Shown here in pieces: positions 5,183 through 27,309 of a stretch of DNA of 64,000 nt (the first letter of the stretch is position 1; the number at the start of each line of letters is the position of its first letter). Origin of the DNA: Lenzites betulinus. Its lineage: Eukaryota; Basidiomycota; Agaricomycetes; Polyporales; Polyporaceae. The stretch spans positions 124,001 to 188,000 of the forward strand of contig JABYQU010000008.1 in assembly GCA_022264855.1 (NCBI GenBank), written 5' to 3'. The notes under the pieces are model-generated. The model worked only from the letters and a program-made list of their open reading frames with translations, was not told where the DNA came from and searched no databases. The translations under genes and the position numbers were made by a program.

Positions 5183-8100
5183 TCACGACGCCATGGACGT
5201 AGCATCGTCGTAAGGAGGGGGAGCATCGCCTCCCGGCTCTCCTTGAGTCTCTTGACGAGCCCCTGCGTCACCCATTTCGGTGACCGGGGCCGTGGTGGTG
5301 GGCGTAGCCTCGCCCTCCTCGACCTCCATGTTGTCGTTTGACGCGTGAGCTGGAGGGGGAGGAGCGGGGTTAGCGGCCGGAGCCTCGTTGGTAGCGGTCG
5401 ACGTGGGTGTCGCCGCTATGTTTAGGGATTGGGGAGGGGGTACATTGACCACCTCCGATACAGAGTGTATGCCGGGGAGAGCCGTGATAGGTTCCCCGGG
5501 AGTGATTCCTTCGCGAGCGGCGCGGGATCGCGCGGCCGCGTCGCGGTGCTCGTCTGCCCACTCGATGGTGACGCCTAGTCGGGCGTACCAGAGTGCGACG
5601 TGAAACAGGGACAGCGCGTCCTCTGCGAAGCTGCCGGGATATGCCTGCGTGGTGCTCTCGGGGCTGACAGGGTACTGTCCCGTCAGAATGATATGACGGT
5701 ACAGGCCCGGCACTGAGAACAATACGTTCGTCAGCGAGAGCCACCGTCCGCGTTCAGACGGGGTTACACGGCGCCAGCAGCTGTTGTAACAATGATGCAT
5801 CAAATCCCGTACGCGCCCAGGACGCGTTATGCACCACAGGCCGTACGTTAGCGCCTTAAATAAGCGCCCATCTGAGTTACAATATAACCTTCCCAATAAG
5901 GCAGCTGACCCCGGCAAGCCCAACAGGCCCTATTATCACTACTGATAACAGGCGCTTTTTGGTGCACCTTCCCAAAATGGTAAGTACTGATATCTCTTAT
6001 CTCCTCAGCGCTTGTTTGATCATATCTGTGTATCTATCTAATCTGTAGGGCGCTTTTTTGGCCATTTCCGGCCTCCTCGGCTAATGGGACCCTAGGTATG
6101 CCCCTCCTCCCTTGCTCTATCTTGCTCATTTCTCATCCGTTTCGCTTCGTTCTTTTTGCATTAGGTGGCGTTTTCAAATGCGATCAAAACGCGCTACTTT
6201 TCGCGCCGTATAGTGAGCTACAAATAAATTCGAAAAAAACGCGCAGATTGGGCGCTTCCTGGACAAATTGGCCTACTGCAGGACCAGTTTGCGTCGCACC
6301 GCGGTCGCGCTGGGCTCGTTCGAAAGCGATTATCCGTCGCTTTCGAACGAGCCTAGCGCGACACGAATCGAACGAGAACTCGCTGAGATGTTGTCCTGCC
6401 AATGGGCAGGAGGACATCCTGCAATATCTTCACCAGTTTTCACTCGTTTCCCTTCGTGTTTCTTCACTATTGTACCCACTGATGTCTCTGAAATAGGTGT
6501 ACAATTCGTTCCGTGTAAAAACGAGGTCAAATTGCCCCAGGAGGCGTCCAGTGCTCGTTCACTGGGCGCCTCCACAAGCGATTGCCTTGCGAGCTTTGCC
6601 CCGAGCGCGGCGCAAAGTACACCGTTGGAAAGCGGTGTGCAGCCGCTTTCCGGCGATGTACTTTTCGTCGCAGTACGAGCATTGGCTGTCTCAGTACGCT
6701 ATTTTTACTAGGCCGCCCTTTCTTCGCTTATTACACTCTCAATAATGCTTCAATGCGCGCGAAAACTGGTACATACGTGTCGTCCATATATACGAAGATG
6801 TGTACCAATTTACAAGGGAAACAGACGTCTTATGCTATAGTTACTTGTATTATACCCTCAGGAGGGTAAATAGGCGCCCGTGGAGCGTCTTAAGACGATG
6901 TGGGCGGCTATGGGCCGTTTTGCAGCCACAGCATGCCAAAACTTGAAGCACTGCAAGCCTCTAACTATAGCTATGCCTCTAATACATATCTCAGCCATTA
7001 CTCATCCTATCAGTATGATATTAGGCTTGTTACAAAGCTATAGACTGTGCCAATCTACCTGTATACATCTGGTAATATATATATTTGTACAAACTGTCTA
7101 AATAGTAAAATATGGGCGACATTTTGCTGTTTCAGGGGTTTCAAGCAGTATCTAAGCACTGTATTATGTTCTATATACTGTACAGACCCTGAAACACCCT
7201 CAGGGGGGTCTAATACACTGTATAAACATGGTCTGTGGGGATGTAATACTCCACTCCCTGCTGTGGAAGAAGTGGAGAGTAAGTCTAAATGTGAGGAGAG
7301 GGCAGGGGGAGAACATCAACTTGTAACACACAGGGTGGTCGCCTTGCCACGCAAAAAATACTGTCGGAAAGCTGCATTCAGCCGCTTTCCGACGGCATGT
7401 TTTGCGCGGAAATCGGACGCGAACTGGTGGAGGTATTGCCCAAGGAAGCGCCCAGTAGGTGAACACTGGACGCTTCCCTGGGCAACCACATGTTCGTTTC
7501 GCGCAAAACGAAAGGTATATCTAGTTAGAAATAGTTAGCAGGTATAATCGTCAGCAAACACCAAGCAAAACGAACCAGAGCTGAGGGCGATATCGCAAGA
7601 TGTCCTCCTGCCCATTGGCAGGAGGACATCTCGACGGGTTCTGGTCCGATTCGCGTCGCGCTAGGCTCGTTAGAAAGCGATTGATAGTCGCTTTCTAACG
7701 AGCCCAGCGCGACCGCGGTGCGACGCAAACTGGTCCTGCAGTAGGCCAATTTGTCCAGGAAGCGCCCAATCTGCGCGTTTTTTTCGAATTTATTTGTAGC
7801 TCACTATACGGCGCGAAAAGTAGCGCGTTTTGATCGCATTTGAAAACGCCACCTAATGCAAAAAGAACGAAGCGAAACGGATGAGAAATGAGCAAGATAG
7901 AGCAAGGGAGGAGGGGCATACCTAGGGTCCCATTAGCCGAGGAGGCCGGAAATGGCCAAAAAAGCGCCCTACAGATTAGATAGATACACAGATATGATCA
8001 AACAAGCGCTGAGGAGATAAGAGATATCAGTACTTACCATTTTGGGAAGGTGCACCAAAAAGCGCCTGTTATCAGTAGTGATAATAGGGCCTGTTGGGCT

Positions 8101-10027
8101 TGCCGGGGTCAGCTGCCTTATTGGGAAGGTTATATTGTAACTCAGATGGGCGCTTATTTAAGGCGCTAACGTACGGCCTGTGGTGCATAACGCGTCCTGG
8201 GCGCGTACGGGATTTGATGCATCATTGTTACAACAGTAGGTGACGGCGCGTCAAAGCGCGGCGACCCATCTGGTGGAACTCGACGTGGACCAGTTGCGGC
8301 CGACCGTCGGGGGCGACCGTCATCCACGACGGACGAGACGACGGGTAGTTCTTCATCCACTTGCGAAGCTCCTTCGCAGTGGAGTCCAGCCGTGGCTGCG
8401 CGAGCTTCACGTGCGGCTGCTGCTTGGAGCGATACGGCCGTCCTGCAATCGGGCGGTCGTTGCGGGTGGTGGGCATCGGCAGATGCGCCGTGCTTGTAGG
8501 GATTAACCCCGGCGGCGTATATGCAGCCGGGTGGGGCTGGTCTACGGTGGGACCTGTCCGATTGGATGGGCCACCCGAGGGACCAGCTCGGTCGGGGTTC
8601 CGCCAGCTGCTCACCAAGACTTGTAATCCCCGCACGCTGGTCAGTGCGGGGTTGGCGTTGACCTGCGCCAGCAGATGTTGTATGCGATGCCGCGCCTGAC
8701 CCATGTCAGTGTGCGAGGCATCCAAGATTTGCCGGGCCTCCTCTTGAGTCATTGGCACGAAGTCATACCAATGGTTGGTGAGCTTGGGGTCCGAGTTCGC
8801 CGGTGCGGCTAACTCGTCGTGGGGCCAGTTGGGGATGAGCGACTGATGAGAGGCGGCAGTCGTGCCTGTCCACGTCATCGTGCCCGGGCGCGGAGGAGCT
8901 GGTACTCCTCGACGCGCGTTCCACATCACTTGCCGACTCGAAATACGCCGCGCCCGTTTGGCGTCGAACGTAGCCTCGTCTTCCGACGAGAAGTCGTAGT
9001 CGACCATGGGGTGCGGGGCCGGCTCTTCCCGCGGCGGCTCGATTCTTTGGGTCTCGGGCGACGTCTGCGTCGGCCGAGTCGTGGTAGACGATCCTTGTCG
9101 GAACATGTCAAATCCACGAACGTCCCCTGCTGATATTGGCGGGGGAAAGCGGGACGACATGTCCTCGTGCCTATCCCCGCGCCGCACCGTCCTGTCCTCG
9201 TTGGGACAGCTGTAAGGTTGGTAACGAGCAGTTTCTGCTCGAGACTCCTGTTGTTTCTTCATATCCTCCAGCTGCTGCTGGAGTCGATCCTTCTCGTCTT
9301 GCAGATCGTCGTACCGCTCGCGCTCGTCGTTGCGCTCGCGACGGTACCGCTCCATCGTCTCACGACGCTCATCTGCGAGCCGCCGTGCCTCCTTCAACTG
9401 CTCTTGCAGTTCGGCTATACGCCGCTCGTTCTCCGCGGCGTCCCCTCCCTCCTTGGAGCGACTATGCTCCTCGAAGTACTGCCAGAACCGGGCTTGAAGC
9501 TGAGCTTGCACGCTCATTTGAGCTTCGCGCAGCGATGGCTCCGACTGCGCGCCCCGAAGATGGCGGATGAACTCGGCGCAGATCACGCAGCCCGTCGTAT
9601 GCGCGACGAGGAGCGGATGCTCTGCTACCGGTCCCCAGGCCAGGTTCATGCTCAGTGGCATGATGGGCGGCATCCCTGGCATTACGCCCATGGGAGCGAC
9701 CTGATTTTGGGGCGGAGCAAACGCTGAGACCGACACCCCGTGTGCTTGAGGGTACGCGGGCGGGTACGCGTAGCCGTATCCCGGCTGCGGATATTGATTC
9801 GTAGGCGGTGTCTGCGTTGGGGCACCGCCGTACTGGTACTGGGCCGGATATGGCGCAGGATACCCAGCTACTTGCTGATGCACGGCTGGGGCGGCAGGAT
9901 CCGGGAAGGCCACGTTTGGTGGCATGGCGGTAGAGGGGGGTGCTGGGCGGTCCACTACCATTTCGGTAGTGGCGCTCGGGGGTGCATTGAGGGGCGCGTG
10001 AGGCGGCTGGGATTGGTCGGGGTTCAT
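5183..10027 (-). pseudogene. Element A accessory ORF (coiled-coil protein), split by a foldback insertion
   Basis: Coding segments are 10027 to 8243 (595 codons) and 5767 to 5183 (194 codons and stop). They are separated by the foldback element and one copy of its 7-bp duplication; without these the frame is continuous and 789 residues long. Visible parts in order: a Pro/Gln/Tyr-rich N-terminus (about 1-130), a segment with CVICAEFIRHLRG, a long Arg/Glu/Gln-rich coiled coil (about 170-270), a variable linker, then PMTQEEARQILD, VSSWRNPDRAGP, WMKNYPSSRPSWM and, after the junction, LTNVLFSVPGLYRHIILTG. I recognise this as a protein type that recurs beside Ty3/gypsy elements in Agaricomycete genomes, always as hypothetical; I know no function. 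As it stands, translation from 10027 runs 4 codons past the insertion point into the foldback and stops at 8228. It follows pol in the same orientation, so it is not gag in the usual place. Confidence 0.75.
5775..8242. mobile_element. Foldback element FB1, copy 1 (2468 bp, long inverted arms)
   Basis: Flanked by a perfect 7-bp duplication ACGGCGC (5768-5774 and 8243-8249). The ends are CAGCAGCTGTTGTA and, on the other strand, CACCTACTGTTGTA. Inverted arms of roughly 0.65 kb match closely from both ends (5775 to about 6440 and about 7560 to 8242), and the mirrored pattern of stem-loops continues inward. No transposase or other credible coding region is present, so it is non-autonomous. Successive hairpins in the left half (6307-6358, 6388-6417, 6540-6573, about 6609-6672) are mirrored by hairpins in the right half (about 7350-7421, 7444-7477, 7599-7631, 7658-7710). 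A second, nearly identical copy lies at 13443-15875 in the opposite orientation. I cannot assign a transposon superfamily. Confidence 0.9.
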
Positions 10028-10350
10028 GGCGGTGGTGCGAGTGTTGAGGGCGAGTGGGTGAGTGAGAGAGTCGTAGTGAAAGCAAGAGAGACGAGTGTGA
10101 AGTTAGGCGAGCGCGAGCTGGCAATTCGCCAGTCGCAGGGTCGCGGAGCCACGCTAAGCGCTGGCTGAGCTCGAATCTGAGCTGTAATTACGCGACGCGT
10201 CGCGCGTAGCACATGTGACCGCGTGCGAGCGCTTGCTAGCAGGTGGCTGTGCTCGCGCCTTCAACGCCGGACGCACAAGTCCTTTTCTCCTTTGACGCCG
10301 CACTGGCTACACTCGCCGTATCGGCGTAGCTACTCCCCACCGCACACGTA
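10028..10350. other. Spacer between pol and accessory ORF of element A
   Basis: About 320 bp on the minus strand between the pol stop and the accessory ORF start. GC-rich, with several short palindromes (for example ACGCGACGCGTCGCGCGT near 10191-10208). It could hold a promoter for the accessory ORF, but no defining motif is visible. Confidence 0.35.
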
Positions 10351-12194
10351 TTAGTGTGCGGCTGGTTTCCGGGGTAAGGCTCGCCATGAGCTGACTCCCA
10401 TGAGCATACAATACTCGTCCAACGCTGCGAGATCTTTACAGCTCTCATACGGCTCCCAAGTATGGTCGCCCTGGGTCCACCGTACGTGAAACCGACATCT
10501 GGCGCCTTGCCACTCGTGGCCGACTATCTCGTCGACCAACCATTCAGCGTCGTCGCTGAGCCCGAAGTCGTAGAAGGCTTGGGCATCGCGATGCGGGAAT
10601 ACCGCATCGTCGTTGGCTTCATGTCTCCTAAGTAGGGAGACATGGAATTTGGGATGTATTTGCCGCTCTCGTAATTCCGAGGGTAGGTCCAATACATAGT
10701 TGGAAGTGCGAGGTATGCACTCCAAAATCTTGTATGGCCCGATGTACTTAGGCACGAGCTTGCGTGCTCGACCTTTGGGCACGGTTAGGTTCTTAGTCGA
10801 GAGATAGACTAAGTCTCCAATCTGGAACTCAGGTTCCTCCTGCCTATGCTTATTCGCATGGTAGGTTTGAGACACACGAGCGTCGATTATGGCATCGTGC
10901 GCTATCTCAAGATTAGCACGAGCTCGCTGTGCGAACTCGCGTACTCCCGCGAACGGAGTTTCCGTTCTGATTCCACTCATCGACCGAGGTAAATACCCAT
11001 AGTTCAATTCGAACGGGGCAAACCCAGTAGTAGAGCTGGCGGCAGAATTCAATGCGAATTCTGCCAAGGGTAGTTTCTCGTACCAATCGAGTTGATTGGG
11101 TGATACTATAGCACGGAGAATCTGAGTAATTGAACGAATAGTTCGCTCACTCAGTCCATCCGTTTGCGGGTGGAAAGAAGTGGACATGAGCAGCTTCGCG
11201 CCCATGAGTCTATGAAGCTCACGCCAGAACTTCGACGTGAACTTGCTGTCTCTATCAGATACGATAGATTCAGGCAACCCGTGGAGTCGTACTACCTCTC
11301 GCAGATATACGAGAGATAGTTCCGCGGCCGTGTCGGTCGTTCGTACAGGTATTAAGTGTACCATAGACGTCATGCGGCATACGACTACCCATACGTAGTC
11401 GTATCCGTGTGACAATGGAAATGGACCGACAAAGTCCATGGAGATCGAGACCCATGGGGCCAGGGCCAGGGGTAAGCTATGTAGTAGCCCCATAGGTAGT
11501 TGAGTGGACGACTTTGCGGTATGACATGTACCGCAAGTTATACAAAATTTATCTACGTCTTTGCGTAGAGTCGGCCACCAAAACCAACGTCTGAGATACT
11601 CAGACGTGCGTTGCGGACCGAGATGTCCCAACGTACTGTGCGCGCGATCAATCACGATCTCGTGTAGTGATCGTTTGTTCAATAGAACCCGGGGTAGGCA
11701 TAACACAGCCTCGCCTTCGCGGTTCTTGGAGAAAATCAACCCATCGCGAGTGGCGAATGCGCTAAACTGAGATGGTTTAGCCATAATTTTGCCAAACGTC
11801 TTGTCCGTAACATATCCGTTACGGACGGCTTTCATGAACCCATCTTCGTTTTCGAAGTGGGTGCGCAGTGAGGGGCCGGACGCTAGCGACATCGCTAGCG
11901 TAGGGTCGTCAGGCGACGTTGGTTCAGATGTAACCTCAGCCGCTGGAGCGTGTGTGGCATACCGTGCGCTCTCTATGACTCGCTCCTCCACTGGCTCCGG
12001 CAGCGTGGTAGCTGTCGGCTTCGCTTTTGCCGGGAGAACGACTTTGTTCTTCGGGCGTGCTACTGGCGCCTCGTCATCGGAGTCACGATAACGAGCAGGT
12101 TTCCGAATGACTCGTCCAGCTCGTATCTCGAGCAGACGACTCTGAGGTAGATCGTCTCCCTCAGGATCTAATCGCGTGTCAGCGTTCACGACGT
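10351..12194 (-). pseudogene. Element A pol remnant: integrase with chromodomain
   Basis: The minus-strand frame runs through the LTR of B to 12444, but only 12194 to 10351 belongs to A; residues before about 84 are translated LTR. Numbered on that frame, the integrase zinc finger has His269, His274, Cys304 and Cys307. The DDE triad is Asp337 (SMDFVGPF), Asp397 (VSDRDSKF) and Glu433 (HPQTDGLSERT). A GPY/F-like module follows (KYIGPYKIL, about 566-574), then a C-terminal chromodomain at about 634-680 (EWLVDEIVGHEW, FHVRWTQGDHTWEPYE, LDEY). The reading starts in the linker that normally follows RNase H, so RT and RNase H were removed where element B joins. No stop or frameshift interrupts the remaining part. 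Confidence 0.88.
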
Positions 12195-12833
12195 TGATGC
12201 GACCTGCGGCCCGCTGAGACCGGAAGGGTACAGCTAGGCGCGGGCGTAGCAGGCTGAGGCGCAGCCGTCGCAAGCCGTCAAGCCGTCGCACGCCCGGCTG
12301 AGTCGCGGGCGCCTGAGGGCGGTAGTCGCAGCAGGAGGAGTCTGGCCGTGCGACCGGCTGATCTCGGACTTTGGGAGAGCGACCCGGTATTGTCCATGTA
12401 TATATTCCGTAGTCCGTAGTTTTCAGAACGCAAGCAATCCCCACCCCTCAGATCTCATAGACCGGCCCTGGTATCGACTGCGACTGCGACTGCGACGGCG
12501 ACTGCGAACTGCGAACTGCGACCGCGAGCTGCGACGTGAACTTGTGACCGCGATCGCGGCTTCCTCTGACCATCGCGACTGCCCCGTCCACGCCTCCTTA
12601 CCAATTTGCTGGCACTGCGACCGGTTGCGATAGAACCGGCGGACCGCGTACCCACCTTCCCTCTGCGATAGCAGGACGACTGCGACCTGCGACGCTTCGT
12701 GGAAGCCCAGTGAAGGGAAACCGGCCCTTACTCGCAGGCATTATCCTTCCCTCCCCGCACTACGTCCGGCCTCGCCCCCTAGGCTCTCGGCCGCGCCCTC
12801 TATCCTGCTGTTATAGCAGGTTTCAGTGCATCA
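12195..12833 (+). repeat. 5' LTR of element B (639 bp)
   Basis: Begins TGATGC and ends GCATCA, a perfect terminal inverted hexamer with the canonical TG...CA. It differs from the 3' LTR at three positions that I can find: near 12430 (GAACG versus GAACC), near 12580 (GCGACT versus GCGACC) and near 12597 (CTCCTTA versus CTCTTTA). It includes a short tandem run of TGCGAC units at about 12477-12535. Confidence 0.93.
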
Positions 12834-12836
12834 TTT

Positions 12837-12854
12837 TGGAGCCCACCGCGAGGG
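12837..12854 (+). other. Putative primer-binding site of element B
   Basis: TGGAGCCCACCGCGAGGG begins three bases after the LTR. It opens with TGG, as expected for pairing with a tRNA 3' CCA. I could not name the tRNA; it is not the common initiator-Met type as I remember it. Confidence 0.5.
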
Positions 12855-12862
12855 GGATATAG

Positions 12863-15800
12863 CAAGCAGTAGTCCGCATTCCTCCTTCCCCGGGCCAAAC
12901 GGCAGTCGTCGCAGCAGCCATTGAGCCGGGACAACGCACACAACAGGCGCCGAAGCGCAAGACAAGAGCAGCGACCAAGGATCCCGATCTCGGTTCCGAG
13001 CTACTCGTCGCAAGATTCAAGCTGCTCATCACCCAGTTCAGCCACCACCTAGACGACGAGAGGCTCTCTGCGATCATAGAACCGGTCTTTGTTCTCCTCG
13101 ACCGCGGCTGCGAACTTCTGCGACGCGACCCCGCAGCCTGCGACTGGTTCCGCGACGCGGCCCTAGCCATCGCAAACCTCTCCCCGACCAGCCTCTCACC
13201 CGCTAGTCCCACACCACGCGACTCGGAAGGCCGCGAACCGACTGAATACCAAGCGCCAGCCTTTCATTCCCCCCTGTCCCCCTTAGAGGACCTCTTCGAG
13301 AACCCATTCGTGGACGTTATGCCAGAACCACAGGAAGCGCCACCACCAGCGCCGCAGTTGCGACCGGCCATGCCAGCGCGAGGTCACTCGACCGCGCCCA
13401 CCTTCACTCCGGAACAGCCGCGTACGCTGCGACGCTTCTTTCCAGCAGCTGTTGTAACAATGATGCATCAAATCCCGTACGCGCCCAGGACGCGTTATGC
13501 ACCACAGGCCGTACGTTAGCGCCTTAAATAAGCGCCCATCTGAGTTACAATATAACCTTCCCAATAAGGCAGCTGACCCCGGCAAGCCCAACAGGCCCTA
13601 TTATCACTACTGATAACAGGCGCTTTTTGGTGCACCTTCCCAAAATGGTAAGTACTGATATCTCTTATCTCCTCAGCGCTTGTTTGATCATATCTGTGTA
13701 TCTATCTAATCTGTAGGGCGCTTTTTTGGCCATTTCCGGCCTCCTCGGCTAATGGGACCCTAGGTATGCCCCTCCTCCCTTGCTCTATCTTGCTCATTTC
13801 TCATCCGTTTCGCTTCGTTCTTTTTGCATTAGGTGGCGTTTTCAAATGCGATCAAAACGCGCTACTTTTCGCGCCGTATAGTGAGCTACAAATAAATTCG
13901 AAAAAAACGCGCAGATTGGGCGCTTCCTGGACAAATTGGCCTACTGCAGGACCAGTTTGCGTCGCACCATCGCTTTCGAACGAGCCTAGCGCGACGCGAA
14001 TCGGACAAGAACCCGTCGAGACGTCCTCCTGCCAATGGGCAGGAGGACATCTTGCAATATCTCCCTCAGCTCTGGTTCGTTTTGCTTGGTGTTTGCTGAC
14101 GAGTATACCTGCCAACAGCTGCTAATTAGATATACCATTCGTCTTGCGTGAAACAAACATAGGGCTGCCCAGGGAAGCGTCCAGTGTTCACCTACTGGGC
14201 GCTTCCTTGTGCAATACCTCCTCCAATTTGCGCCCGATTCCCGCGCAAAACATGCCGTCGGAAAGCGGCTGAACGCAGCTTTCCGACAGTATTTTTTGCG
14301 TGGCAAGGCGACCACCCTGTGTGTTACAAGTTGATGTTCTCCCCCTGCCCTCTCCTCACATTTAGACTTACTCTCCACTTCTTCCACAGCAGGTAGTAGA
14401 GTATTACAGCCCCACAGATAATGCTTATACAGTGTATTAGAATCCCCTGAGGGTGTTTCAAGGTCTGTACAGTATATAGAACATAATACAGTGCTTAGAT
14501 ACTGCTTGAAACCCCTGAAACAGCAAAATGTCGCCCATATTTTACCATTTAGACAGTCTGTACAAATATATATATTACCAGATGTATACAGGTAGATTGG
14601 CACAGTCTATAGCTTTGTAACAAGCCTAATATCATACTGATAGGATGAGTAATGGCTGAGATATGTATTAGAGGCATAGCTATAGTTAGAGGCTTGCAGT
14701 GCTTCAAGTTTTGGCATGCTGTGGCTGCAAAACGGCCCATAGCCGCCCACATCGTCTTAAGACGCTCCACGGGCGCCTATTTACCCTCCTGAGGGTATAA
14801 TACAAGTAACTATAGCATAAGACGTCTGTTTCCCTTGTAAATTGGTACACATCTTCGTATATATGGACGACACGTATGTACCAGTTTTCGCGCGCATTGA
14901 AGCATTATTGAGAGTGTAATAAGCGAAGAAAGGGCGGCCTAGTAAAAATAGCGTACTGAGACAGCCAATGCTCGTACTGCGACGAAAAGTACATCGCCGG
15001 AAAGCGGCTGCACACCGCTTTCCAACGGTGTACTTTGCGCCGCGCTCGGGGCAAAGCTCGCAAGGCAATCGCTTGTGGAGGCGCCCAGTGAACGAGCACT
15101 GGACGCCTCCTGGGGCAATTTGACCTCGTTTTTACACGGAACGAATTGTACACCTATTTCAGAGACATCAGTGGGTACAATAGTGAAGAAACACGAAGGG
15201 AAACGAGTGAAAACTGGTGAAGATATTGCAGGATGTCCTCCTGCCCATTGGCAGGACAACATCTCAGCGAGTTCTCGTTCGATTCGTGTCGCGCTAGGCT
15301 CGTTCGAAAGCGACGGATAATCGCTTTCGAACGAGCCCAGCGCGACCGCGGTGCGACGCAAACTGGTCCTGCAGTAGGCCAATTTGTCCAGGAAGCGCCC
15401 AATCTGCGCGTTTTTTTCGAATTTATTTGTAGCTCACTATACGGCGCGAAAAGTAGCGCGTTTTGATCGCATTTGAAAACGCCACCTAATGCAAAAAGAA
15501 CGAAGCGAAACGGATGAGAAATGAGCAAGATAGAGCAAGGGAGGAGGGGCATACCTAGGGTCCCATTAGCCGAGGAGGCCGGAAATGGCCAAAAAAGCGC
15601 CCTACAGATTAGATAGATACACAGATATGATCAAACAAGCGCTGAGGAGATAAGAGATATCAGTACTTACCATTTTGGGAAGGTGCACCAAAAAGCGCCT
15701 GTTATCAGTAGTGATAATAGGGCCTGTTGGGCTTGCCGGGGTCAGCTGCCTTATTGGGAAGGTTATATTGTAACTCAGATGGGCGCTTATTTAAGGCGCT

Positions 15801-17427
15801 AACGTACGGCCTGTGGTGCATAACGCGTCCTGGGCGCGTACGGGATTTGATGCATCATTGTTACAACAGTAGGTGTTCTTTCAAGATATCGAAGCGCTCT
15901 TCGAGCGCAGCGGAGTAGAGGAGGACCGACAGCGCAAGCAGTGGGTAGTGCGGTACCTACCGATCGACGTATCCGAGCTCTGCGAGAGCCTCCCGGCCTA
16001 TGAAGCTGGAGTCGCGTATCGCGAGTTCGTCAAAGCGGTTACAGACCTATACCCTGGCGCGGAAGAGTCGCGCAAATATTCGGTCGCAGATGTCGAGGCA
16101 CTCGTCGCAAGACGAGCGGCCGTCGCAATCACTAGCATCACCGAGCTATCCAGCTACTATCGCGACTTCTTCGCGATGACCACCTACCTCATATCGCAAG
16201 CGCGACTGTCGACGTCCGAGCAGTCGCGTCTGTTCGTCAAAGGAATCCGCGCTCCCCTATGGGACCAAGTGTCGCAGAGGCTGCAGCTCAAAGACCCGGA
16301 CCACTATCCGGACGACCCTTACGAGCTAAACAAAGTGTACGAGGCCACGAAGTTTGTCCTCCACGGAACGCTCGCAACCGCCCCCCTCCCATCTAGCGCC
16401 AACGCGACCGCAAATGTCGCGAACCCGTCAGTAAAGGTGGAAGACCTCGCCCCTCTGTTGCGATTGCTCGCACAGTCCGTGAACGAGCGAGGAAACGCCC
16501 CTGGTCCTGCCGCACAGTCGCAACAGAATCGCTTGTCGGGGAGCTACGCGACGCAGGACCAGAACGACGGCTTCTGCCACTATTGCGGGAACGCCGGCTG
16601 CATGCTACGGAACTGCCCCTTTGTCCAGGAAGACGTCGACGCAGGGCGGTGTATCCGGAACCACGAAGGACGGGTCTGTCTACCCAACAGGATGTATGTG
16701 CCCAGGTTCATGCATGGCTTCAATGGCCTCACTATGCGCGATCGAGTCTACGAGTGGCATCGTCGCAATCCCAATCAGCTCGCGTCGCGGCCGACGTCGC
16801 AGATGGTGTTCGAGATCGCAGAGGACCCGTACACGGCGAGTGGCTTTGCGCTTGCGACGGAAGACCGGATCGCACAGCTGGAGTACGAGCTTTACGCTCT
16901 GCGACGGACCAAAGAACGCTTCGACGGAGTAGAGGTACCTTCCTATCGGCGACCTACCCAACGGCCACGACCGGGGACTCCGCCCCCAAGCGGATCGCGC
17001 GATCCGCGACCGCTACCCCCCCCTCCTGTTCAGACGAGCCCGCGCGTACTGCCACCGAGCAACGGCCCAAGTTCGCGAACGCCGGTCGCAATGTCGCGCG
17101 ACGCAAACACGGGACTGTCGAGCTATCCAGCGAGCCAGCCGGGACGCGGCGGAATGACACAGGACACTACGTTTAGGACGGCGCCCAGTCGCGACAGGTC
17201 GCAAGAGCGCTCAGCCCATAACGTCGCACGCCTCCGCGAGGCAGGCCACGAACACTGGAGGGGTACCCGAGCACCCGTTCGCAAAGTCGCGCGATGCGAC
17301 TTACGCGCCACCGACCACACGCAACTTCGGGGCACCCCCGCCGAAACCGAAGCCAGGAGAGCCCGCGTACAGGAACCAGATCCCAGTACATCAGACCAAG
17401 ATCGCAGAGGAAATCTTTGCACGCACG
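12863..17427 (+). pseudogene. Element B gag, split by foldback copy 2
   Basis: An open frame runs 12863-13442 and resumes in register at 15883 once the foldback and one copy of its duplication are removed. The first ATG in this frame is only at 13310, so the true start is unclear. After the junction come helical capsid-like sequence (ALFERSGVEED, YLPIDVSELCESL, EFVKAVTDLYPG, and ARLSTSEQSRLFVKGI), then a knuckle at about 16572-16616 reading CHYCGNAGCMLRNC. This is C-X2-C-X4-C-X4-C, with Cys where retroviral knuckles have His. A Pro/Ser/Arg-rich tail follows. From about 17150 the protease frame (offset by one) is also open, so gag and protease overlap for some 250 nt; either a programmed shift or an indel could join them. 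Confidence 0.8.
13443..15875. mobile_element. Foldback element FB1, copy 2 (2433 bp, inverted relative to copy 1)
   Basis: Flanked by the perfect 7-bp duplication TTCTTTC (13436-13442 and 15876-15882), with the same ends as copy 1. The interior is the reverse complement of copy 1: sequence unique to one half of copy 1 (for example 6880-7101) reappears at 14549-14770 on the other strand. The two copies are nearly identical over long stretches. The main difference is that copy 2 lacks about 36 bp in its left arm near 13970, which removes half of the outermost hairpin. No coding region of its own. The near-identity implies recent movement by a transposase supplied elsewhere. Confidence 0.9.
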
Positions 17428-18190: not shown

Positions 18191-21100
18191 GTGGTCATTA
18201 CCGAAGAGTTCGGCATACCGCAGATCTGCGCATATACCCAGTTACCGGACGTTTCTCTCTCTATCCCTGCTATCTACCTATCTGCGTGCGACCGTCTCTC
18301 GGGCCTTATGGAAGCCCACTTATTATCAAAAGAACCACAAAGCGAACCCAGTATCCCGTCTGCGACCCGTGATTTCTCGTCTTTCTTCTCTCCTGCGACT
18401 CCCCTGAGGGCCCAGCCTGCGACCGCCCGCGGGCCAGGCAAAGCCTCTGCGACCGCGGCGCAACCTGCGGTCCCCGATACCCCCCTAGCCTCTGGGCGCC
18501 AGCAAAGGCCGTTCGCATTCGCGTACAAAACCGACGCCGGTTCCTTTGTGGTCGCACCTCGGTCGCAAACCGCGACGCAGGCATCCCCAGCCGGGATCTT
18601 CATACAGTCCAAAAAGAAGTACAAGCCCGTGGCGCAGAAGGTGCGACCGGTGCTAGGCACCGTACCGGGCCAGTTCCGCATAGAGCGCAACATCACTGGC
18701 GACCCTTTAGCGGGGATGCCTAGACTGAATCCGCGACCGCCCCCGTTCGTACCGACTGGGCGCTACACCGAGGAGCGCAAGCAAGCCATGGACGAGGCGC
18801 ATGGAGGCGACTTCCTATGGGCAGAAGAGCGCAAACTGCTACACGACTTCATGCGACAACACAACGAGGCGTTCGCGTGGGATGACACAGAGCGCGGCTG
18901 CTTCAAGCCAGAATTCTTCCCTCCCGTCGAGTTTCCCGTGCTACCACACACACCCTGGGTGGAGCGCAATATCCCTATACCCCCAGGCCTCTACCGCGAA
19001 GTCTGCGACATGCTCAAGAAGAAGATCGCAGCCGGCGTCTATGAGCCATCCAACTCCTCCTATCGGTCGCGATGGTTCTGCGTCCTCAAAAAGGACGCGA
19101 AGTCGCTGCGAATCGTACACAGTTTAGAGCCACTCAACAAGGTTACCATCCAACACTCTGGAGTAACACCTACGCCCGACTACCTAGCCGAACAGTTCGG
19201 AGGTCGCGCCTGCGGCGCGATCTTCGATCTCTACGTGGGGTACGACGAGAGACTGATCGCAGAGTCCTCGCGCGACCTCACGACCTTCCAGACGCCCTAC
19301 GGAGCGCTGCGACACTGTACCCTCCCTATGGGATGGTCAATTCCGTACCAATTTTCCACGACGACGTCACCTACATCCTGCGACCGGAAATACCCGAGAT
19401 CACGGTCCCCTACATCGACGATGTACCCTGTAAAGGGCCTGCGTCAGACTATCGCGACGAAGGAGGGACCTACGCGACCATCCCAGAGAACCCAGGGATC
19501 CGGCGTTTTGTGTGGGAACACTTCCAGAACAACAATCGCATCGTCCAGCGCATGAAGTACGCAGGCGGGACGTTCTCTGGGAAGAAGTCCATCCTCTGCG
19601 CCCGCGAGATACTGGTGGTAGGGCACCGGTGCACCCCCGAAGGTCGCAAGCCAGACGAATCGCGCGTCGCAGCAATCAAGAAGTGGCGCACATGCAAGGA
19701 CCTCTCGGAGGTACGCGCCTTCTTGGGGACCGTAGGCGTCGCAAGGATCTTCATTCGCAACTTCGCGCGACGGGCTCACGCGCTGGTCGCACTCACAAGG
19801 AAAGACGCCCCATTCGAATTCGGAGAGGCGCAGATCGCGGCAATGGACGATTTGCGAGAGGCGCTCCTGGCCTCCCCTGCGCTACGGGCGATCGACTACG
19901 ACAATGGAGCGCCAGTGGTGCTCGCAGTCGACACATCCTACATCGCAGTAGGCTACCACCTCTGCCAATGCGACCCAGACGACCTTCGCAAGCGCTATTA
20001 CAGCCGCTTCGGGTCCATCACCCTCAACAGCGCGAAGCGCGCTTCTCGCAACCAAAACTAGAGCTCTACGGTCTGTTCCGCGCACTACAAGCGACCAAGA
20101 TCTACCTAGTAGGAGTTCGCAACCTCATAGTCGAGGTCGACGCGCGGTATATCCGCGGAATGCTACAGAATCCGGACCTCGCGCCCAGTGCAAGCATCAA
20201 CCGCTGGATCTTGGGTATCCTCACCTTCCACTTCCACCTGGTACATGTGCCGGGCACGTCGCACGGCCCAGACGGCCTGTCGCGTCGCAACCCACAACCC
20301 GACGATGACCCCGCGGAAGACCCAGACGAATTCGAGGACTGGATAGACAAGGTCCACGGCTTCATGCACCATATCCTAGCCCCCCCATCGCGTCTGCGAC
20401 GCAAGACGCCCGCGATCGCAATGTTGGAGTTATCCGAAGCGACCGAGGACGGTCGAAATTTCAGTGAGGGGGAGGATCGCGCGAGCAGCGACACGGGAGC
20501 AGAGGCGACCGCGATAGACCAAGAGACCGAGCTACCGTCTAATGAGCACTCGACCAAAGCCGACGCGCGGCTGCGACTAGTTGCGGACTGGCTCCGAACG
20601 CTCCAGCGACCACTGGGCCTCACGGATAGCCAGTACGCGTCTCTGATCAAGTACGCGCAAGGATTCTTCTGGACGACCAACGGTTGTGGAAGAAGGACGC
20701 ACAAGGCGCACACAAGATAGTAGTGCGACCCGAGCGACGCTTCAGCATACTACGGGGAGCGCACGATGAGCTAGGACACCGAGGCAACTATGCGACGCTC
20801 CAGATGGTCGCAGAACGCTTCTGGTGGCCCTCCCTACGAGAGGACGTGTCCTGGTACATCAAGACGTGTCACCTGTGTCAGGTGCGATCGCATCGCAAGA
20901 TCCTGATCCCACCCACGGTCGCGCGACCAGGCGCGCTCTTTGTACGATGGTACGTGGACACCATGAAGATGCCGGCGTCCGGCGGGTTCCGCAATATCGT
21001 CGCAGCGCGATGCTCCGTATCAGCATGGACGGAATGGCGCATGTTGCGAGTAGAAACGGACAAGGTCATCACCGACTTCCTCCTCCAAGACTTGTACTGC

Positions 21101-21970
21101 CGATGGGGTGCACCCTCGGAGATCGTGACCGACAATGGGTCGGCCTTCGTCAGTGCAGCCGGAAGACTACAGCGCAAATATGGCCTTCCCCATATTCGTA
21201 TCAGCGCGTACAATTCCAAAGCCAATGGGATCGTCGAGAGGTCGCATTTCGATCTGCGACAACTGCTATTCAAGGCGGCGGACGGCGACCAGACCAAGTG
21301 GTCGCAGGTCGCACCCTACGTATTCTGGGCGGATCGCATCACGGTCCGCAAACGTATGGGCTGCTCGCCCTACTTCGCGGTCACAGGGTGCCACCCTATC
21401 CTCCCTATGGATATCGCAGAGGCGACCTACCTCATGCCCGCACCAGAAAAGCTCCTGTCAACCGAAGACCTCATCGCGCGACGTGCGATCGAACTCCAAA
21501 AGCGGCAAGGGCAGCTAGCTACACTACACTCAAGGGTCTACCGAGCGAGAGTGGAGGCCGCCCAAAAGTTCGAGCGCGATCACGCTGCGACCATACGCGA
21601 CTTCGACTTCAAACCCGGGGCCCTGGTCCTTATGCGACATACGCAGATCGAGAAGTCGCTGAATCGCAAGATGCGGCCGCGGTACACAGGCCCGCTAGTG
21701 GTAGTGTCCCGCAATCGCGGAGGCGCATACGTACTCTGCGAACTGGATGGCTCAGTGCTCCACCGACCGGTCGCAGCCTTTCGAGTCATCCCGTACCTAG
21801 CTCGCAAGGCTATACCCCTACCTGAAGGGTTCGCAGATATCTCAGGCAAAAGGCTACACGAGCTAGTCGCATCCGAGGACGACGGTACAGAAGACCCGGA
21901 ACCAGAAGTCTTAGACGAGCCGCCAGTATTCGCAGGGCCAGGGGGCAGCGAAGGCGACGAATCAGATTGA
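18191..21970 (+). pseudogene. Element B reverse transcriptase, RNase H and integrase (frameshifted)
   Basis: Three overlapping registers encode one pol. 18191 to about 19337 carries the linker and RT N-terminus (PPGLYREVCDMLKKKI, SRWFCVLKKD, GALRHCTLPMG). About 19337 to 20050 carries the RT core with YIDD, then GIRRFVWEH, FSGKKSILC and the start of RNase H (VVLAVDTSYIAVG). About 20050-20686 carries the RNase H end (LELYGLFRALQATKIYLVG, HVPGTSHGPDGLSRR). From about 20684 comes integrase: finger HDELGHRGNY...CHLCQVRS, triad in WYVDTMKM, VTDNGSAF and NSKANGIVERS, and C-terminal RPRYTGPLVVV. Each register change is explained by a single missing base (within GGATGGTC near 19337; GG for GGG near 20672). 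There is no chromodomain; the end is acidic. As written the polyprotein cannot be made. Confidence 0.88.
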
Positions 21971-22250: not shown

Positions 22251-24436
22251 CTAGTCCTCGGGCTCCAAGTCGGCCGCGCTCCACTCAAGTCCGAGCAGTA
22301 TCCTCTCGCGCTCCTGGAGGTCCGCGACCTGATGGGTCAGTGCGGAGATGCGGGCCCGTAGGAAGGCGCGCTCCTGGCGATAAGCAAGGATGAGCAGGCG
22401 GCGGTCTTCGGTCATCCCGGGGACGTTCTCCAAGTCTTCCACCTCCTCGTCGCGCGGTGGCTCCGCTCGCAGGAGGGAGGTGGTCCGCGTCGCAGCCGGG
22501 TGAGCGCGGGGCGCGAGGCGGGAAGGACCCGCGACCGGTGCGATCGCAGAGTGTGTGGCGGCGGAGTCCGGGGCGCGCGATCGGGAAGTCGAGGGGCTGG
22601 GCACGCTCGCGATGGTACGCGAGGCCCCGTACGTGCGCGTGGGTCGAGCCTGGATGTGGAGGAGGTCCTCCTGGCCGGGGTAGGTTACGATCAGTCGGGT
22701 GTACTCTACCGGAGGGAAGAGTTGGCTCACCAAAACCGACGGGAGGCGCTCCGCGTCCTGTGCAGCGCTTGAAGGGGCCAGCGTGATGTCCTCCTCGCGA
22801 GCAGCGCGATCGCAGAAGGAGGGGTCGGAACGCGAGGCGCGGGCGGAGGCGTGGCGACGCGAGGAGGGAAAGGCCGAAGAAGGAAGGTCGCGGTCGTGGC
22901 CTTGGGCGCAGGCGCCGCGACGGGCACAGGCGTCGCGACGGGCGCTGGAGCCGCGGCGGTCGCAGATGTCGCGGTGGTCGCAGGGGCGGGCGCGATCGCA
23001 GGGGCGGGCGCGATCGCAGGGGTAGTCGCAGCGCGCTCCGCCGTAGCGGCGGCCAGGAGGGCGTTGAGCTCCTGTGCGGTCGCATCTTCTTCCGTGACAC
23101 CTTCGGGCAGCCGGCAGCATTCGGGAATGTCGGAAGGACGACCTTTCGCGGTGAGGACCGCGCGCCAAATGTGTCCGACGGGCGAGTTCGCTAGGCCAAG
23201 GCAAAAGAGGTCAATATCGCAAGAAACGGGAAGGCCGCGCAGCTTGCGACGTACCGCGGTCGAACCCGTTACTGTCGTACCACTCCCCGTAGTCGATGTG
23301 CCCCGGCGCGTAGCACCCCTTTTGGGAGTACACGCAGCGGTCGCACTTGCGCACCCCGCGACGCAGGACGCATCGGGGGCGCACAAGCGTCTGGCACTGC
23401 ACGCACTGTGGGGAAAGGGAGTTAGCGCGATCGCAAGTGGATAAGGGACGGGAACTTACCGTCTCCTTGCCAGAGGGCACGCGCGCGCCCGGTGGATAAG
23501 TCGCGGGCTCAAAGCCCTCAGTGGTCCGTGGTCGCTTCGTGACCAGGACGAAGTCCTCGTCGTCGCGGACGTGCTTGCGCGACGGGCCAGCGGGGGAAGG
23601 GGCGAGGCCGTGGAGGAGGTCGCAGCTGCGACCGCGGGCTTCGTGGGCGTCACTGGAGCGGGCAGGGGCACGGACTTGGCAACCGGGGTGACCTTCAAAG
23701 TGACGGCCGCCTTGGTCGCAGGCGCCGCCTTGGTCGCAGGCGCCGCTTTGGTCGCTGGCGCGGCCTTGGTCGCGGGTGTTGCTTTGGTCGCGGGCGCCGC
23801 TTTGGTCGCAGGCGCCGTCTTCGTCGCGGGTGGGGGCCTGGTCGCGAGTGGAGGGGCGTTGGAGGCACGCATCATGGCGCGGGTCCTAGGTGCTGCGGCG
23901 GCGGCTGGGGCTGCGACGGCGAGCGGGATGTCCTCCTCGTCGGAGTCGGCGGCGGCTGCACGCGCGTCCGCCCAGATCTTGCGACGCGCCGCGACCTCCC
24001 GCTGTTCCTCGGCCTCGCGGGCCTCGGCCTCTGCGGCGCGTCGCGCGACCAAAGCGGCACCGGCTCGCTCGCGGGCGGCAACGTACATGGGGTCCTCGGA
24101 CGGACTGTCCTCGCCCATGTAACCGTCGAGCTGCGCGTCGACGGCCTCGAACAAGCGATCGCCCCAGGCGGCGATCAACCCGTCGTCACCGCCGTAGCGC
24201 TGCAAACGCCGCTGGGAGAGGGTCAGTGGGAGAACTCGGTCGCAGTCGCAAAAGGGAGGGCGTACCAGCCATACCAGCGCGGAGGTCGCAAAGTCCGCAT
24301 AGTCGGCCGCAGTGGCCACGCCGTCGGGGGCCGCCCTGAAGAGGTCCTCCAGGTTGGTGATCGTGTCGGCGCGCATGAGCGCGGGGTCGGCGCGGTTCTT
24401 ACCCTTGCGGGACGCGGAGGTAGAAGAGCCAGCCAT
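22251..24436 (-). CDS. Element B antisense gene Z: Zn2Cys6-like cluster with histone-H1-like tail
   Basis: Starts at ATG 24436. Exon 1 encodes a conserved-looking block (ADYADFATSALVWLVRPPF, LPLTLSQRRLQRYGGDD), a Glu/Ala/Arg helix and seven near-identical Ala-Thr-Lys-Ala-Pro repeats (about 23700-23830). Near 23595 the frame slips by one base in a C run, then continues DDEDFVLVTKRPRTTEGFE to a GTAAGT donor. Exon 2 holds CVQCQTLVRPRC...KCDRCVYSQKGC, spacing C-X2-C-X7-C-X8-C-X2-C-X6-C, close to a fungal Zn2Cys6 cluster. A second intron (GTACGT to CTAG) leads into ANSPVGHIWRAVL and GVTEEDATAQEL, then a Pro/Ala linker. The C-terminus (SVLVSQLFPPVEYTRLIV; RQERAFLRARISAL coiled coil) is again one base out of register. 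Probably a DNA- or RNA-binding accessory protein; function unknown. Confidence 0.72.
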
Positions 24437-24751
24437 GAGGAGAGAGGGTCGAAGCGGAGGAGAGAGAGAGGGAGGAAGAAAACGGGAGGAAAGCACGAAG
24501 TCCAACGAGGGATGCGACGGGTACTTAGCCGTCGCAGCGCCCCTCCCGCGGGCGGTAGCGGTGCAGGGTCGAGGAGCGCTAGAGGTCGCAAGCACGCGGC
24601 ATGTCAAGCGCCGAAGCATCGCGGAAGCAAAATTTCCAGCGTACGGAGACTTAGCGCTGACGCGCCGCGACCCAGTCGAACGGGCGCTACGCGGGTGCAT
24701 TCAGAGCGCAGCGGGGCGCGCGACGCGTTCCCACCAGATCGTGTCCCGATC

Positions 24752-27309
24752 CACCAGCTGTGGTACCCATAATGTATTACGAACCGTTCATGTGCCCGCG
24801 CAGCATTACATTATAAACCGTTCGTGTTCATAATGTATTACGAGCAGCCGGGGGCGCCAGCGCTGCCCTCCGGGACCTGCCTAATATGGTAGGCAGGCCC
24901 GGGGACAGTGCTGGCGCCCCCGGAAGCCTCTAATCTCTTATCTAACATAGATAATGGCCATATCTAATCTCCCTGGTACTTTCACGCGCGCCTGTGCCTC
25001 CCTCGCAGCCACATCCCGATTAGGCAGGTCTGCCTCAGCCACCCTCCCCTGCCTGCTTGCTCCCCTTCTACCTCGCTCAAATCCCGGCCGATTCGCTTCA
25101 AAAGTGGCGCGTTTTACTCGGATGTGGTCACGCTACAATCTCCCGCAAACGGAATAGAAATACGGTAAGTACTGACTGCGCCACACTACATACAGTAACA
25201 GGGTACAATAGGCGACAAAGAACGGGCGATATCTCGCTCGTTCTTTGTCGCCTCTGCGCGCAGATTACGTTCCCATAAAGAGGGATCGTAGCGCATTCGA
25301 ACGAGCCCGCACGCGCGCGATTCGGCCCACGGACGGTGGAGCTGCGTTCCGCCCACCCCGGGGGGAGTGCAGCTCCTCCTCCTGTGCTTGTATTTCACCC
25401 GTTTTTTCTCGCACTTGCTCTATACAGTCACTAATACACTCTATGTCATAGGTACAGCGTTTTATGAACATAATACGGCCAAGAAACACGTCGAGGAGGG
25501 TGGGTAGTAGCCCAGCTACTACCCACCTTCCTTGATGCATATCTCCGTCACCTCTGTGCGTATCGTCGCGCAAAAGGCACCTCCAGAAAGCGGCGGATTG
25601 CAGCTTTCTTTCGGTGTCTTTTGCGCGACGATACGACCGCACAAACCCTCGCAATACGGCATCCTGTGTTCCATACAGTGTAATAACATGTTGTAGCAAT
25701 ATAATCATGTATAATTCTTTAAATGACATTCTTTTTCCTTAAACATATCAGTGATGGCCATCGCTATGCGTACACGAAGATGTAGGACAATCGGAGCCCG
25801 TTCAGACTTGGAAATCACTTATCAGTGCTCGGAATGTACATCTTTACCACAGGAGATCCGCTCAATCGATTTTAATATAAACTGACGCAACTAGCATCCT
25901 ATCGAACCGCTATCTATGTACAAAGCTACATGGAAAACGGACTAGAACTGACGGAGATATCGTGTTTTCACTGTAGACATGCAGGTAGCCGCCCACCGTC
26001 TTAAGACGGTCTCGGGCGGCTTCAGCATGTCTGTATGTATAGCACAGTATATACAGACCCTGTAGAACACTTTATAGAGTAGTAATTCGAGTTCTTTGCC
26101 TATTTACATGTTCTTGGGCTCGTCTGAAAGCTGTATACGAGTGCTATCCAGTCACATACTTTATGGATATAATTGTGCTTTCAGTAGCTATGTATCAGCT
26201 AACTTAGTGTACATCAGTCACAGTTTTCGAGTTTTTGATGACTTCCTGTGTTTGTTCAGGACAGATGGATCTACATTGTTATATATGAGGTATATATAGT
26301 GTATTAGGTATCAAGTAACATGTATGCAGCATTCTAAAGTACCTGTGAAGAGATGGAAGGGAGGTGAGCAGGTGGGGGGGAGGGAGGAGGAGCAGATATG
26401 GATAGCGAAGCGCTATGTGGTCGTATCACCGCGAGAAAGGCACCGACAAAAAGCTGCATTCAGCCGCTTTCTGGCGGTGCCTTTTGCGCGGCGATACCCG
26501 CAGATGTCACGTAGATATGCGTCGAGGAAGGTGGGTAGTAGCTGGAGTACTACCCACCCTCCTCGACGCGTCTGTGGGCTGTAGTTTGTTCAGAAGACAT
26601 TATAACTGTGGAGTAGAGTGTATTAGGTACTGAACAAAACATGTGCGAGCAAAAACGAAGGTTATCTGGGTACAGGAAGTGGAGCTGCACTCCCCCCGGG
26701 GTGGGCGGAGCGCAGCTCCACCGTCCGTGGGCCGAATTGCGCGCGTGCGGGCTCGTTCGAACGCGCTGAGCTTCCTCTTGATGGGAAAACAGTTTGCGCG
26801 CAGAGGCGACAAAGAACGGACGAGATATCGCCCGTTCTTTGTCGCCTCTTCTGCACTTTCACTGTATCTACTGTAGAACAGTGAGTACTTACCTGATTCC
26901 CATTCCGTTTGCGCGCAATTGTAGCGTGATTACACCCGAGTAAGATGCGCTAGTTTTGAAGCCAATCGGACGGGAATTGAGCGAAGGAGAGGCGAAGCAG
27001 GTAGGCAGGGGAGGGAGGACAAGAGTGTACCTGCCTAATCGGGATGTGGCTGCGAGGGAGGCACAGGCGCGCGCGGAAAAGCCGCAGGGAGATGAGATAA
27101 GACATAATCTATTAAGAGATAACAGATTAGAGGCTCCCGGGGGCGCCAGCACTGTCCCCCGGGCCAGCCTACCATATTAGGCAGGTCCCGGAGGGCAGCG
27201 CTGGCGCCCCCGGCTGCTCATAATACATTACGAACACGAACGGTTTATAATGTAATGCTGCGCGGGCGCATGAACGGTTCGTAATACATCAGAACTACAA
27301 CAGGGGCTG
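24752..27309. mobile_element. Foldback element FB2 (2558 bp), second family
   Basis: Flanked by the perfect 7-bp duplication CCCGATC (24745-24751 and 27310-27316). Ends are CACCAGCTGTGGTA and, on the other strand, CAGCCCCTGTTGTA, which fit the same pattern as FB1 (CA[GC]C, two variable bases, CTGT[TG]GTA). Long inverted arms include a conserved block at 24850-24935 and 27130-27220 (GGGGGCGCCAGC). Inside are many hairpins: 25210-25255, 25335-25376, 25490-25535, 25568-25630 and 25990-26020, with mirrored ones at 26440-26490, 26525-26575, 26680-26735 and 26805-26850. No transposase. It lies in the gap between antisense genes Y and Z of element B. Confidence 0.88.

What the first reader, a model, noticed from the sequence alone, without database searches (positions are those of the whole stretch)
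5775..27309. A hairpin-array foldback transposon superfamily: three insertions, two families, one terminal code, 7-bp duplications
Seen: 5775-8242, 13443-15875 and 24752-27309 each have long inverted arms and a perfect 7-bp flanking duplication (ACGGCGC, TTCTTTC, CCCGATC). The first two are the same family; the third differs over most of its length. Yet all four distinct termini fit CA[GC]C-NN-CTGT[TG]GTA. A constant 7-bp duplication is not typical of hAT (8), Tc1 (2), CACTA (2-3) or PIF (3) elements, from general knowledge. None of the three has a transposase. Inference: a non-autonomous superfamily moved by an unidentified transposase of this fungus. The two FB1 copies are nearly identical, so mobility is recent.
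Basis: partly seen in the sequence, partly recalled or inferred. Interest (0 to 1): 0.88.

Follow-up and report, generated by a model that had tools for sequence, protein, structure and literature searches.

The report
Hairpin-armed riders of KDZ transposons
Three non-coding jumping elements in a mushroom-type fungus carry the same kind of ends as long KDZ transposons in the same genome, so KDZ transposase very probably moves them; their conserved array of DNA hairpins and their consistently unlike left and right ends are unusual.

Summary
In detail: the three elements have the stated ends and 7-bp duplications, and joined flanks match 13-18 uninterrupted copies of each target elsewhere (the four that I read hold the 7 bp once). 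Of 46 end pairs examined genome-wide, 41 have a perfect 7-bp duplication (39 sites). The 'unidentified transposase' is very probably KDZ: four 12.6-14.4 kb elements with such ends and 7-bp duplications enclose KDZ transposase matches. Published Kyakuja-type KDZ elements also make 7-bp duplications with CA..TG termini, so this is a non-autonomous branch of KDZ, not a new superfamily. Unusual points: (1) the non-coding families are anciently related to one another and keep about 2.5 kb and a hairpin array, yet match their KDZ partners over little more than the terminal 89-100 bp where I could read further; (2) all 41 copies with 7 bp have one CAG and one CAC end, while the three same-end copies lack duplications; (3) FB1 interiors lie in both orientations relative to the ends, suggesting recombination between arms. 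New variant of a known kind. The purpose of the hairpins is unresolved; mispair counts show no sign of one favoured RNA strand.

The parts
5768..5774 (.). 7-bp duplication ACGGCGC, left of FB1a
   Evidence: empty sites
5775..8242 (+). FB1a, non-coding hairpin-armed element (CAG end left, CAC end right)
5775..5866 (+). CAG-type end module (first 92 bp)
8151..8242 (-). CAC-type end module (last 92 bp)
6304..6362 (.). hairpin H3 (26-bp stem), left arm of FB1a
6607..6671 (.). conserved hairpin H1, FB1a
7344..7412 (.). conserved hairpin H1, mirrored copy, FB1a
7655..7713 (.). hairpin H3, right arm of FB1a
8243..8249 (.). 7-bp duplication ACGGCGC, right of FB1a
13436..13442 (.). 7-bp duplication TTCTTTC, left of FB1b
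   Evidence: empty sites
13443..15875 (+). FB1b, same family, interior inverted relative to its ends when compared with FB1a
14238..14306 (.). conserved hairpin H1, FB1b
14979..15043 (.). conserved hairpin H1, mirrored copy, FB1b
15288..15346 (.). hairpin H3, right arm of FB1b
15876..15882 (.). 7-bp duplication TTCTTTC, right of FB1b
24745..24751 (.). 7-bp duplication CCCGATC, left of FB2
   Evidence: empty sites
24752..27309 (+). FB2, second non-coding family (CAC end left, CAG end right)
24752..24843 (+). CAC-type end module, 98% identical to the CAC end of the KDZ-bearing element AUTO1
27218..27309 (-). CAG-type end module, 92% identical to the CAG end of AUTO1
25210..25253 (.). hairpin H2, left arm of FB2
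26423..26497 (.). conserved hairpin H1, FB2
26802..26849 (.). hairpin H2, right arm of FB2
27310..27316 (.). 7-bp duplication CCCGATC, right of FB2

Best explanation
FB1 and FB2 are non-autonomous DNA transposons mobilised in trans by KDZ transposases of a Kyakuja-like type made by 12.6-14.4 kb elements in the same genome. The transposase recognises an end module of about 90-100 bp, one end beginning CAG and the other CAC, cuts the element out and inserts it with a 7-bp staggered cut. The non-coding body is an old lineage of its own whose end modules follow the partner transposon. Its long arms recombine: within one copy, which flips the interior, and between copies, which yields same-end elements without duplications. 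Shown: the shared ends, 7-bp duplications, KDZ matches inside four such elements, empty sites, interiors in both orientations. Inferred: actual trans-mobilisation, cut-and-paste chemistry, the need for unlike ends, recombination as the cause of flips and same-end copies.
For: AUTO1 (C22:87335-101694, 14,360 bp, duplication CACAAGA) has the ends of FB2 (98% and 92% over 92 bp) and carries CxC2 (1.8e-37) and KDZ. AUTO2 (C79:19016-31641, GCTGTAT), AUTO3 (C87:20955-35024, ACACTGC) and AUTO4 (C87:1688-15875, GAATCGG) each enclose KDZ matches. End identities pair up: FB2-AUTO1 98/92%, FB4-AUTO2 93/92%, FB5-AUTO3/4 87/85%. KDZ of AUTO1, AUTO2, AUTO3 and a neighbour of AUTO2 group at 99/98 support among 27 rows. 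41 of 46 end pairs have exactly 7 bp. Empty sites. Published 7-bp duplications and CA..TG termini for Kyakuja (PMC12730594).
Against: No transposition was observed. The KDZ gene of AUTO1 is read in two frames, and the N-terminal KDZ matches of AUTO2, AUTO3 and AUTO4 have stops inside; introns or damage, I cannot tell. FB1 and the related FB6 have no KDZ partner among the pieces held (ends at most 59% to any AUTO end). Published Kyakuja-1/2_LB have no inverted repeats, whereas AUTO1 has about 880-bp arms. Four of 46 pairs have no 7- or 8-bp duplication and one has 8 bp. Most of the KDZ places were not tied to any ends. Transposase phylogeny against reference Kyakuja was not done.
Confidence: 0.9

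Rival explanations
1. The FB families are ordinary internal-deletion derivatives of KDZ elements; the hairpin arms come from arms of an autonomous element that I did not read.
For: AUTO1 also has long arms with internal repeats. AUTO3 shares a second block of 40-45 bp with AUTO1 and FB2 beyond the end module. The interiors of AUTO2-4 are mostly unread.
Against: FB2 matches AUTO1 only over 92 bp at each end across its whole 14.4 kb; FB4 matches AUTO2 for 100 of 347 bp read at one end; FB5 matches AUTO3 for 89 of 394 bp read at one end. FB bodies match one another. The three parts of AUTO1 scanned (1,200 bp of each arm, 2,500 bp of the middle) hold no hairpins by the same scan.
Confidence: 0.2
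2. A Galileo-like P-superfamily transposase (7-bp duplications, foldback arms) moves them.
For: Same architecture and duplication length as Galileo of Drosophila (PMC2775673, passages). One P-element profile match in the genome, C42:3871-4014, 26.9 bits, E 2e-4, above the family cut-off of 23.
Against: The four long elements with these ends enclose KDZ matches; in AUTO1 no P-element domain was found in the frames scanned.
Confidence: 0.02
3. A hAT7-type transposase (7-bp duplications, described in rust fungi) moves them.
For: hAT7 makes 7-bp duplications (PMC12730594, passages).
Against: No hAT domain in the frames of AUTO1 that were scanned; KDZ present instead. hAT was not searched genome-wide.
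Confidence: 0.03
4. The hairpins act as RNA (for example precursors of small RNAs) rather than as DNA.
For: Three H1 copies fold with z of -7 to -18 and H1 covaries.
Against: G-T and A-C mispairs are about equally common (22 and 25), whereas a selected RNA strand should favour G-U; no Rfam match in window 5000-28000 at gathering scores.
Confidence: 0.2

Closest known systems
Kyakuja (KDZ) DNA transposons of Agaricomycetes
   Same: KDZ transposase in the partner elements, 7-bp duplications, CA..TG termini
   Different: The two published Laccaria families are said to have no inverted repeats and to encode TET/JBP; here AUTO1 has long arms and no TET/JBP was seen in its scanned frames
KDZ1-KDZ3 of Cryptococcus neoformans
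   Same: KDZ transposase with a CxC domain, elements of about 9-11 kb with inverted repeats of 139-241 bp (PMC12810828, passages)
   Different: 8-bp or 4-8-bp duplications and CxC1; here 7 bp and, in AUTO1, CxC2; no hairpin-array riders mentioned in the passages seen
Galileo (P superfamily, Drosophila)
   Same: Foldback-like long arms, 7-bp duplications, ectopic recombination with exchanged duplications (PMC2775673, passages)
   Different: P-type transposase and a GTAGTAC target consensus; here KDZ, and by eye I saw no strong target consensus at 39 sites
KDZ and non-autonomous DNA elements of Marasmius oreades
   Same: KDZ elements abundant and their inverted-repeat motifs characterised; non-autonomous DNA elements classified by ends and duplication length (PMC8290104, passages)
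   Different: Non-autonomous elements described as mostly under 1,000 bp; the figure with KDZ ends is in a supplement that I could not read, so whether non-autonomous KDZ families were among them I cannot say

Membership tests
KDZ superfamily | KDZ transposase domain inside a complete element with these ends | tested here: met
   AUTO1-4, (not in the FB copies scanned, which are non-autonomous: FB1b six frames and FB2 three forward frames)
KDZ superfamily | Associated cysteine cluster (CxC) | tested here: met
   CxC2, 1.8e-37, in AUTO1; not tested in AUTO2-4
Kyakuja (KDZ) | 7-bp target duplication | tested here: met
   41 of 46 end pairs; 20 of the 25 pairs not chosen by equal 7-mers
Kyakuja (KDZ) | 5'-CA..TG-3' termini | tested here: met
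   all 46 pairs; CA was part of the search pattern for most ends, so this is partly by construction
Kyakuja (KDZ) | Absence of inverted repeats (as in Kyakuja-1/2_LB) | tested here: not met
   about 880-bp arms in AUTO1; described for two families only, so hardly defining
Kyakuja (KDZ) | Transposase falls in the Kyakuja clade | not tested
   no reference sequences at hand; own-genome tree only
Zisupton / Dileera (KDZ) | 8-bp target duplication | tested here: not met
   8 bp in 1 of 46 pairs
P superfamily (Galileo) | P-type transposase between the ends | tested here: not met
   scanned frames of AUTO1; one profile match elsewhere in the genome
hAT7 | hAT transposase between the ends | tested here: not met
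   scanned frames of AUTO1 only; no genome-wide hAT search

The most novel reading that the evidence does not exclude
The FB bodies are one ancient non-coding mobile lineage defined by a conserved DNA hairpin array. It has outlived single transposons by repeatedly acquiring or converting its 90-100 bp end modules to match different KDZ transposases, whose strand transfer requires one CAG end and one CAC end (a rule like the 12/23 rule of V(D)J recombination, recalled). The hairpins, kept paired at DNA level, would serve arm recombination or end renewal.
Probability: 0.35. Interest if true: 0.75.

Novelty: new variant of a known kind. Interest (0 to 1): 0.56.

Why it matters
KDZ elements are abundant in mushrooms but called understudied (PMC8290104 passages). 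Here one genome offers matched sets of long KDZ-bearing and short non-coding elements, an explicit end module, a testable unlike-end rule and many empty sites, which together make KDZ transposition directly assayable. A non-coding lineage with a covarying hairpin array that follows several transposases would be a clear case of a long-lived transposon parasite.

Tried and rejected
P-superfamily and hAT7 membership: rejected as above. A coding role of the FB elements: no transposase in six frames of FB1b and three forward frames of FB2 (one sub-threshold DUF7949 match); reverse frames of FB2 and all of FB1a not scanned. Rfam: no match in window 5000-28000. A stringent hairpin scan found 1-7 hairpins in FB1a, FB1b, FB2, FB3 and FB4, 0 in three shuffles of each, 0 in four control stretches of the window and 0 in the AUTO1 arms; a looser one found 3-10 in six elements against 0-1 in three mononucleotide shuffles of each and 0 in AUTO1. 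Asking for flanks inside a pattern failed because outer N letters are dropped. Target-site preference: no strong consensus by eye in 39 unique sites. The idea that C24:182259 and C63:99460 are reciprocal products of one exchange was dropped by eye, since their flanks do not match. Paper searches: CxC2 with KDZ transposase and fold-back transposon with fungi and hairpin gave 0 papers; MITE with Zisupton and non-autonomous gave 3, seen as listing only; Galileo, listing only. The original KDZ paper of 2014 (recalled) is not held.

Rows dropped or not reached: from the H1 alignment I left out 7 of the 22 hairpins listed (near-duplicates and short ones); some rows were reverse-complemented by their loop; all 15 used had been found by a hairpin scan, so the paired percentage is raised by selection. 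One of the five measures, further pair types, does not exceed the shuffles (32 against 32.5; 359 of 500 as high). AUTO4 KDZ was not held and is absent from the tree, which holds 27 rows (22 different) of about 40 KDZ places by my count. 9 of the 134 pattern hits were never fetched. End pairs with one side unfetched or off the contig (for example C50:331422, C99:2064) are not among the 46.
Full report
What is there. The three elements are exactly as described: 5775-8242, 13443-15875 and 24752-27309, with perfect 7-bp direct duplications and long inverted arms. The window is C87:124001-188000 of a 37.4 Mb, 108-contig assembly. For a shikimate-pathway gene in the window the first named row of the protein listing is Ganoderma adspersum at 77%; unnamed rows reach 83%. 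A polypore-like agaricomycete is likely (inference).

Insertion is supported by empty sites. With the element and one duplication removed, the joined 233 bp of flank matches 13 other places across the junction for FB1b, 8 of them with the top bit score over all 233 positions, 18 for FB1a (17 over positions 1-232 and one over 42-232) and 13 for FB2, at 92-99%. In the four FB1b empty sites that I read the 7-mer stands once; the rest is inferred from uninterrupted matches. The targets are repeats, probably Gypsy-like retroelements, since integrase domains lie in neighbouring open frames at 10351-12444 and 20684-21970. For both FB1 insertions the best empty copies are listed at 100%, consistent with recent insertion.

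The duplication length holds genome-wide. The terminal pattern has 134 hits against 46 for the reversed control. I hold 125 of these 134; 69 belong to 46 end pairs, 48 look like family ends whose partner I did not find or fetch, and 8 look like chance. Pairs were found by equal 7-mers (21 pairs) or by sequence similarity of the arms (25). Of 46 pairs, 41 have an exact 7-bp duplication at 39 unique sites (C74, C86 and C12 share one site), one has 8 bp (C53:69997) and four have none. Because 21 pairs were chosen by equal 7-mers, the fairer subset is the other 25: 20 of 25 have 7 bp (subtraction), counting the shared site three times.

The transposase. Searching the genome with the KDZ profile gave 77 matches. 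One set lies in C22:87335-101694: 14,360 bp, CACAAGA on both sides, ends equal to those of FB2 over 92 bp (98% and 92%), arms of about 880 bp, CxC2 and KDZ on the plus strand. Three more elements with the same kind of ends enclose KDZ matches and have intact duplications: C79:19016-31641 (GCTGTAT), C87:20955-35024 (ACACTGC) and C87:1688-15875 (GAATCGG). KDZ from AUTO1, AUTO2, AUTO3 and a neighbour of AUTO2, whose own ends I do not know, form a supported group (99/98) among 27 KDZ rows of this genome. The KDZ gene of AUTO1 is read in two frames and the N-terminal matches in AUTO2-4 have stops inside; without transcripts I do not say whether that is introns or damage. Most KDZ places are not tied to any ends here.

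End modules follow partners. Over the first 92 bp FB2 resembles AUTO1 (98/92%), FB4 resembles AUTO2 (93/92%), and FB5 resembles AUTO3 and AUTO4 (87/85%). This exceeds likeness among FB families in most comparisons (FB2-FB4 68-74%), but FB3-FB5 at 78-83% equals FB3-AUTO3 at 78-83%, and FB5-AUTO3 is only slightly higher. Similarity stops at 92 bp for FB2-AUTO1, where the whole of both was compared, at 100 bp for FB4-AUTO2, 347 bp read at one end, and at 89 bp for FB5-AUTO3, 394 bp read at one end. Against a strict module: AUTO3 has a further block of 40-45 bp at 127-189 in common with AUTO1 and FB2. FB1 and FB6 have no partner among what I hold.

The bodies are one old lineage. FB3 and FB5 align along their arms at 68-71%, FB2 and FB3 at 65-71% over stretches of 100 bp or more, FB4 and FB3 in blocks of 50-66 bp at 76-84%, and FB1 joins mainly through the H1 hairpin (72-86%). 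Non-coding copies among the 46 pairs are 2.43-2.56 kb, except 2,099 bp in C42. The hairpin scan finds 7, 6, 7, 7, 10 and 3 hairpins in FB1a, FB1b, FB2, FB3, FB4 and FB5, 0-1 in shuffles, and none in the three parts of AUTO1 scanned. Hairpin H1 sits near 0.85 kb and near 1.55-1.7 kb. On 15 H1 copies from five families 89.6% of cells pair, 17 of 36 pairs have changes on both sides (54 cells), and for four of five measures 0 of 500 shuffles reach the observed value; the fifth, further pair types, is no higher than in shuffles (359 of 500 as high). Sliding drops pairing to 34-46%. Relatedness inflates the shuffle control and the copies were chosen as hairpins. G-T and A-C mispairs are 22 and 25, so neither strand looks like a selected RNA. 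Selection on DNA hairpins and self-templated correction of palindromes both fit.

Unlike ends. All 41 pairs with 7 bp, and the one with 8 bp, have one CAG end and one CAC end. The three same-end pairs (C24:182259 CAG/CAG, C63:99460 CAC/CAC, C52:277382 CAG/CAG with an FB1 left and an FB4-like right end) have no duplication; one unlike pair (C65:150226) also has none. Fisher's exact test gives p = 0.0003, but shared ancestry makes the counts non-independent and only three same-end pairs exist. A simple reading is that same-end copies arose by recombination between copies and cannot, or rarely, transpose.

Interior flips. Relative to the CAG end, FB1 interiors lie forward in C76:964943, C87:129775 (the reference itself), C87:52992 and C52:277382, and reversed in C87:137443, C40:106099, C40:100413 and C24:182259. 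C24 and C52 have two CAG ends, so their orientation is by the left end only; without them the count is 3 to 3. C63 had too little sequence. The FB2 and FB3 copies with enough sequence were all forward, two FB2 copies (C50:331422, C99:2064) having one end not held. Crossing over between the arms of one element would explain the flips.

Comparison with print. Kojima 2025 (PMC12730594; abstract, passages and section 3.2 read) gives Kyakuja 7-bp duplications and CA..TG termini without inverted repeats, and 8 bp for Zisupton and a Dileera family. Cryptococcus KDZ1-3 make 8-bp or 4-8-bp duplications (PMC12810828, passages). Galileo is the closest architectural parallel (PMC2775673, passages). In Marasmius oreades KDZ inverted-repeat motifs were characterised, with details in a supplement that I could not read (PMC8290104, passages). 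The listings of my searches and the passages read mention no hairpin-array KDZ riders; I ran no search for an unlike-end rule as such, and the library is open-access only.

Verdict. Ordinary in superfamily, unusual in form: a new variant of a known kind.

Noticed in passing
C74:159708, C86:95787, C12:400591 (G000): Three FB1-like copies with the same duplication TCGACCT and the same left flank over the 14-25 bases seen, so one insertion site is present on several contigs (segmental duplication, repeat target or uncollapsed haplotypes).
   Followed up: partly
C22:59224 and C50:331422 (G000): Two FB2 copies share the same left 7-mer GATGGCG, possibly the same insertion on two contigs.
   Followed up: no
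C1:1023031, C18:33297, C22:42173, C4:17464, C32:955272, C55:172701 (G000): A further terminal family (CAGCAGCTGTTGTACCCAAATACTGTAA..) with six ends and no partner end identified.
   Followed up: no
C81:51444-56511 (G000): KDZ match followed 4.3 kb on by a terminus of another subfamily; possibly a fifth KDZ-bearing element with an FB4 copy beside it, other end not located.
   Followed up: partly
C42:3871-4014 (G000): Single P-element transposase profile match (26.9 bits, E 2e-4).
   Followed up: no
window 2565-3359: Open frame with an APH-type phosphotransferase domain.
   Followed up: no
window 10351-12444 and 20684-21970: Integrase-bearing open frames; the insertions appear nested in Gypsy-like retroelements that have many near-identical copies.
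   Followed up: partly
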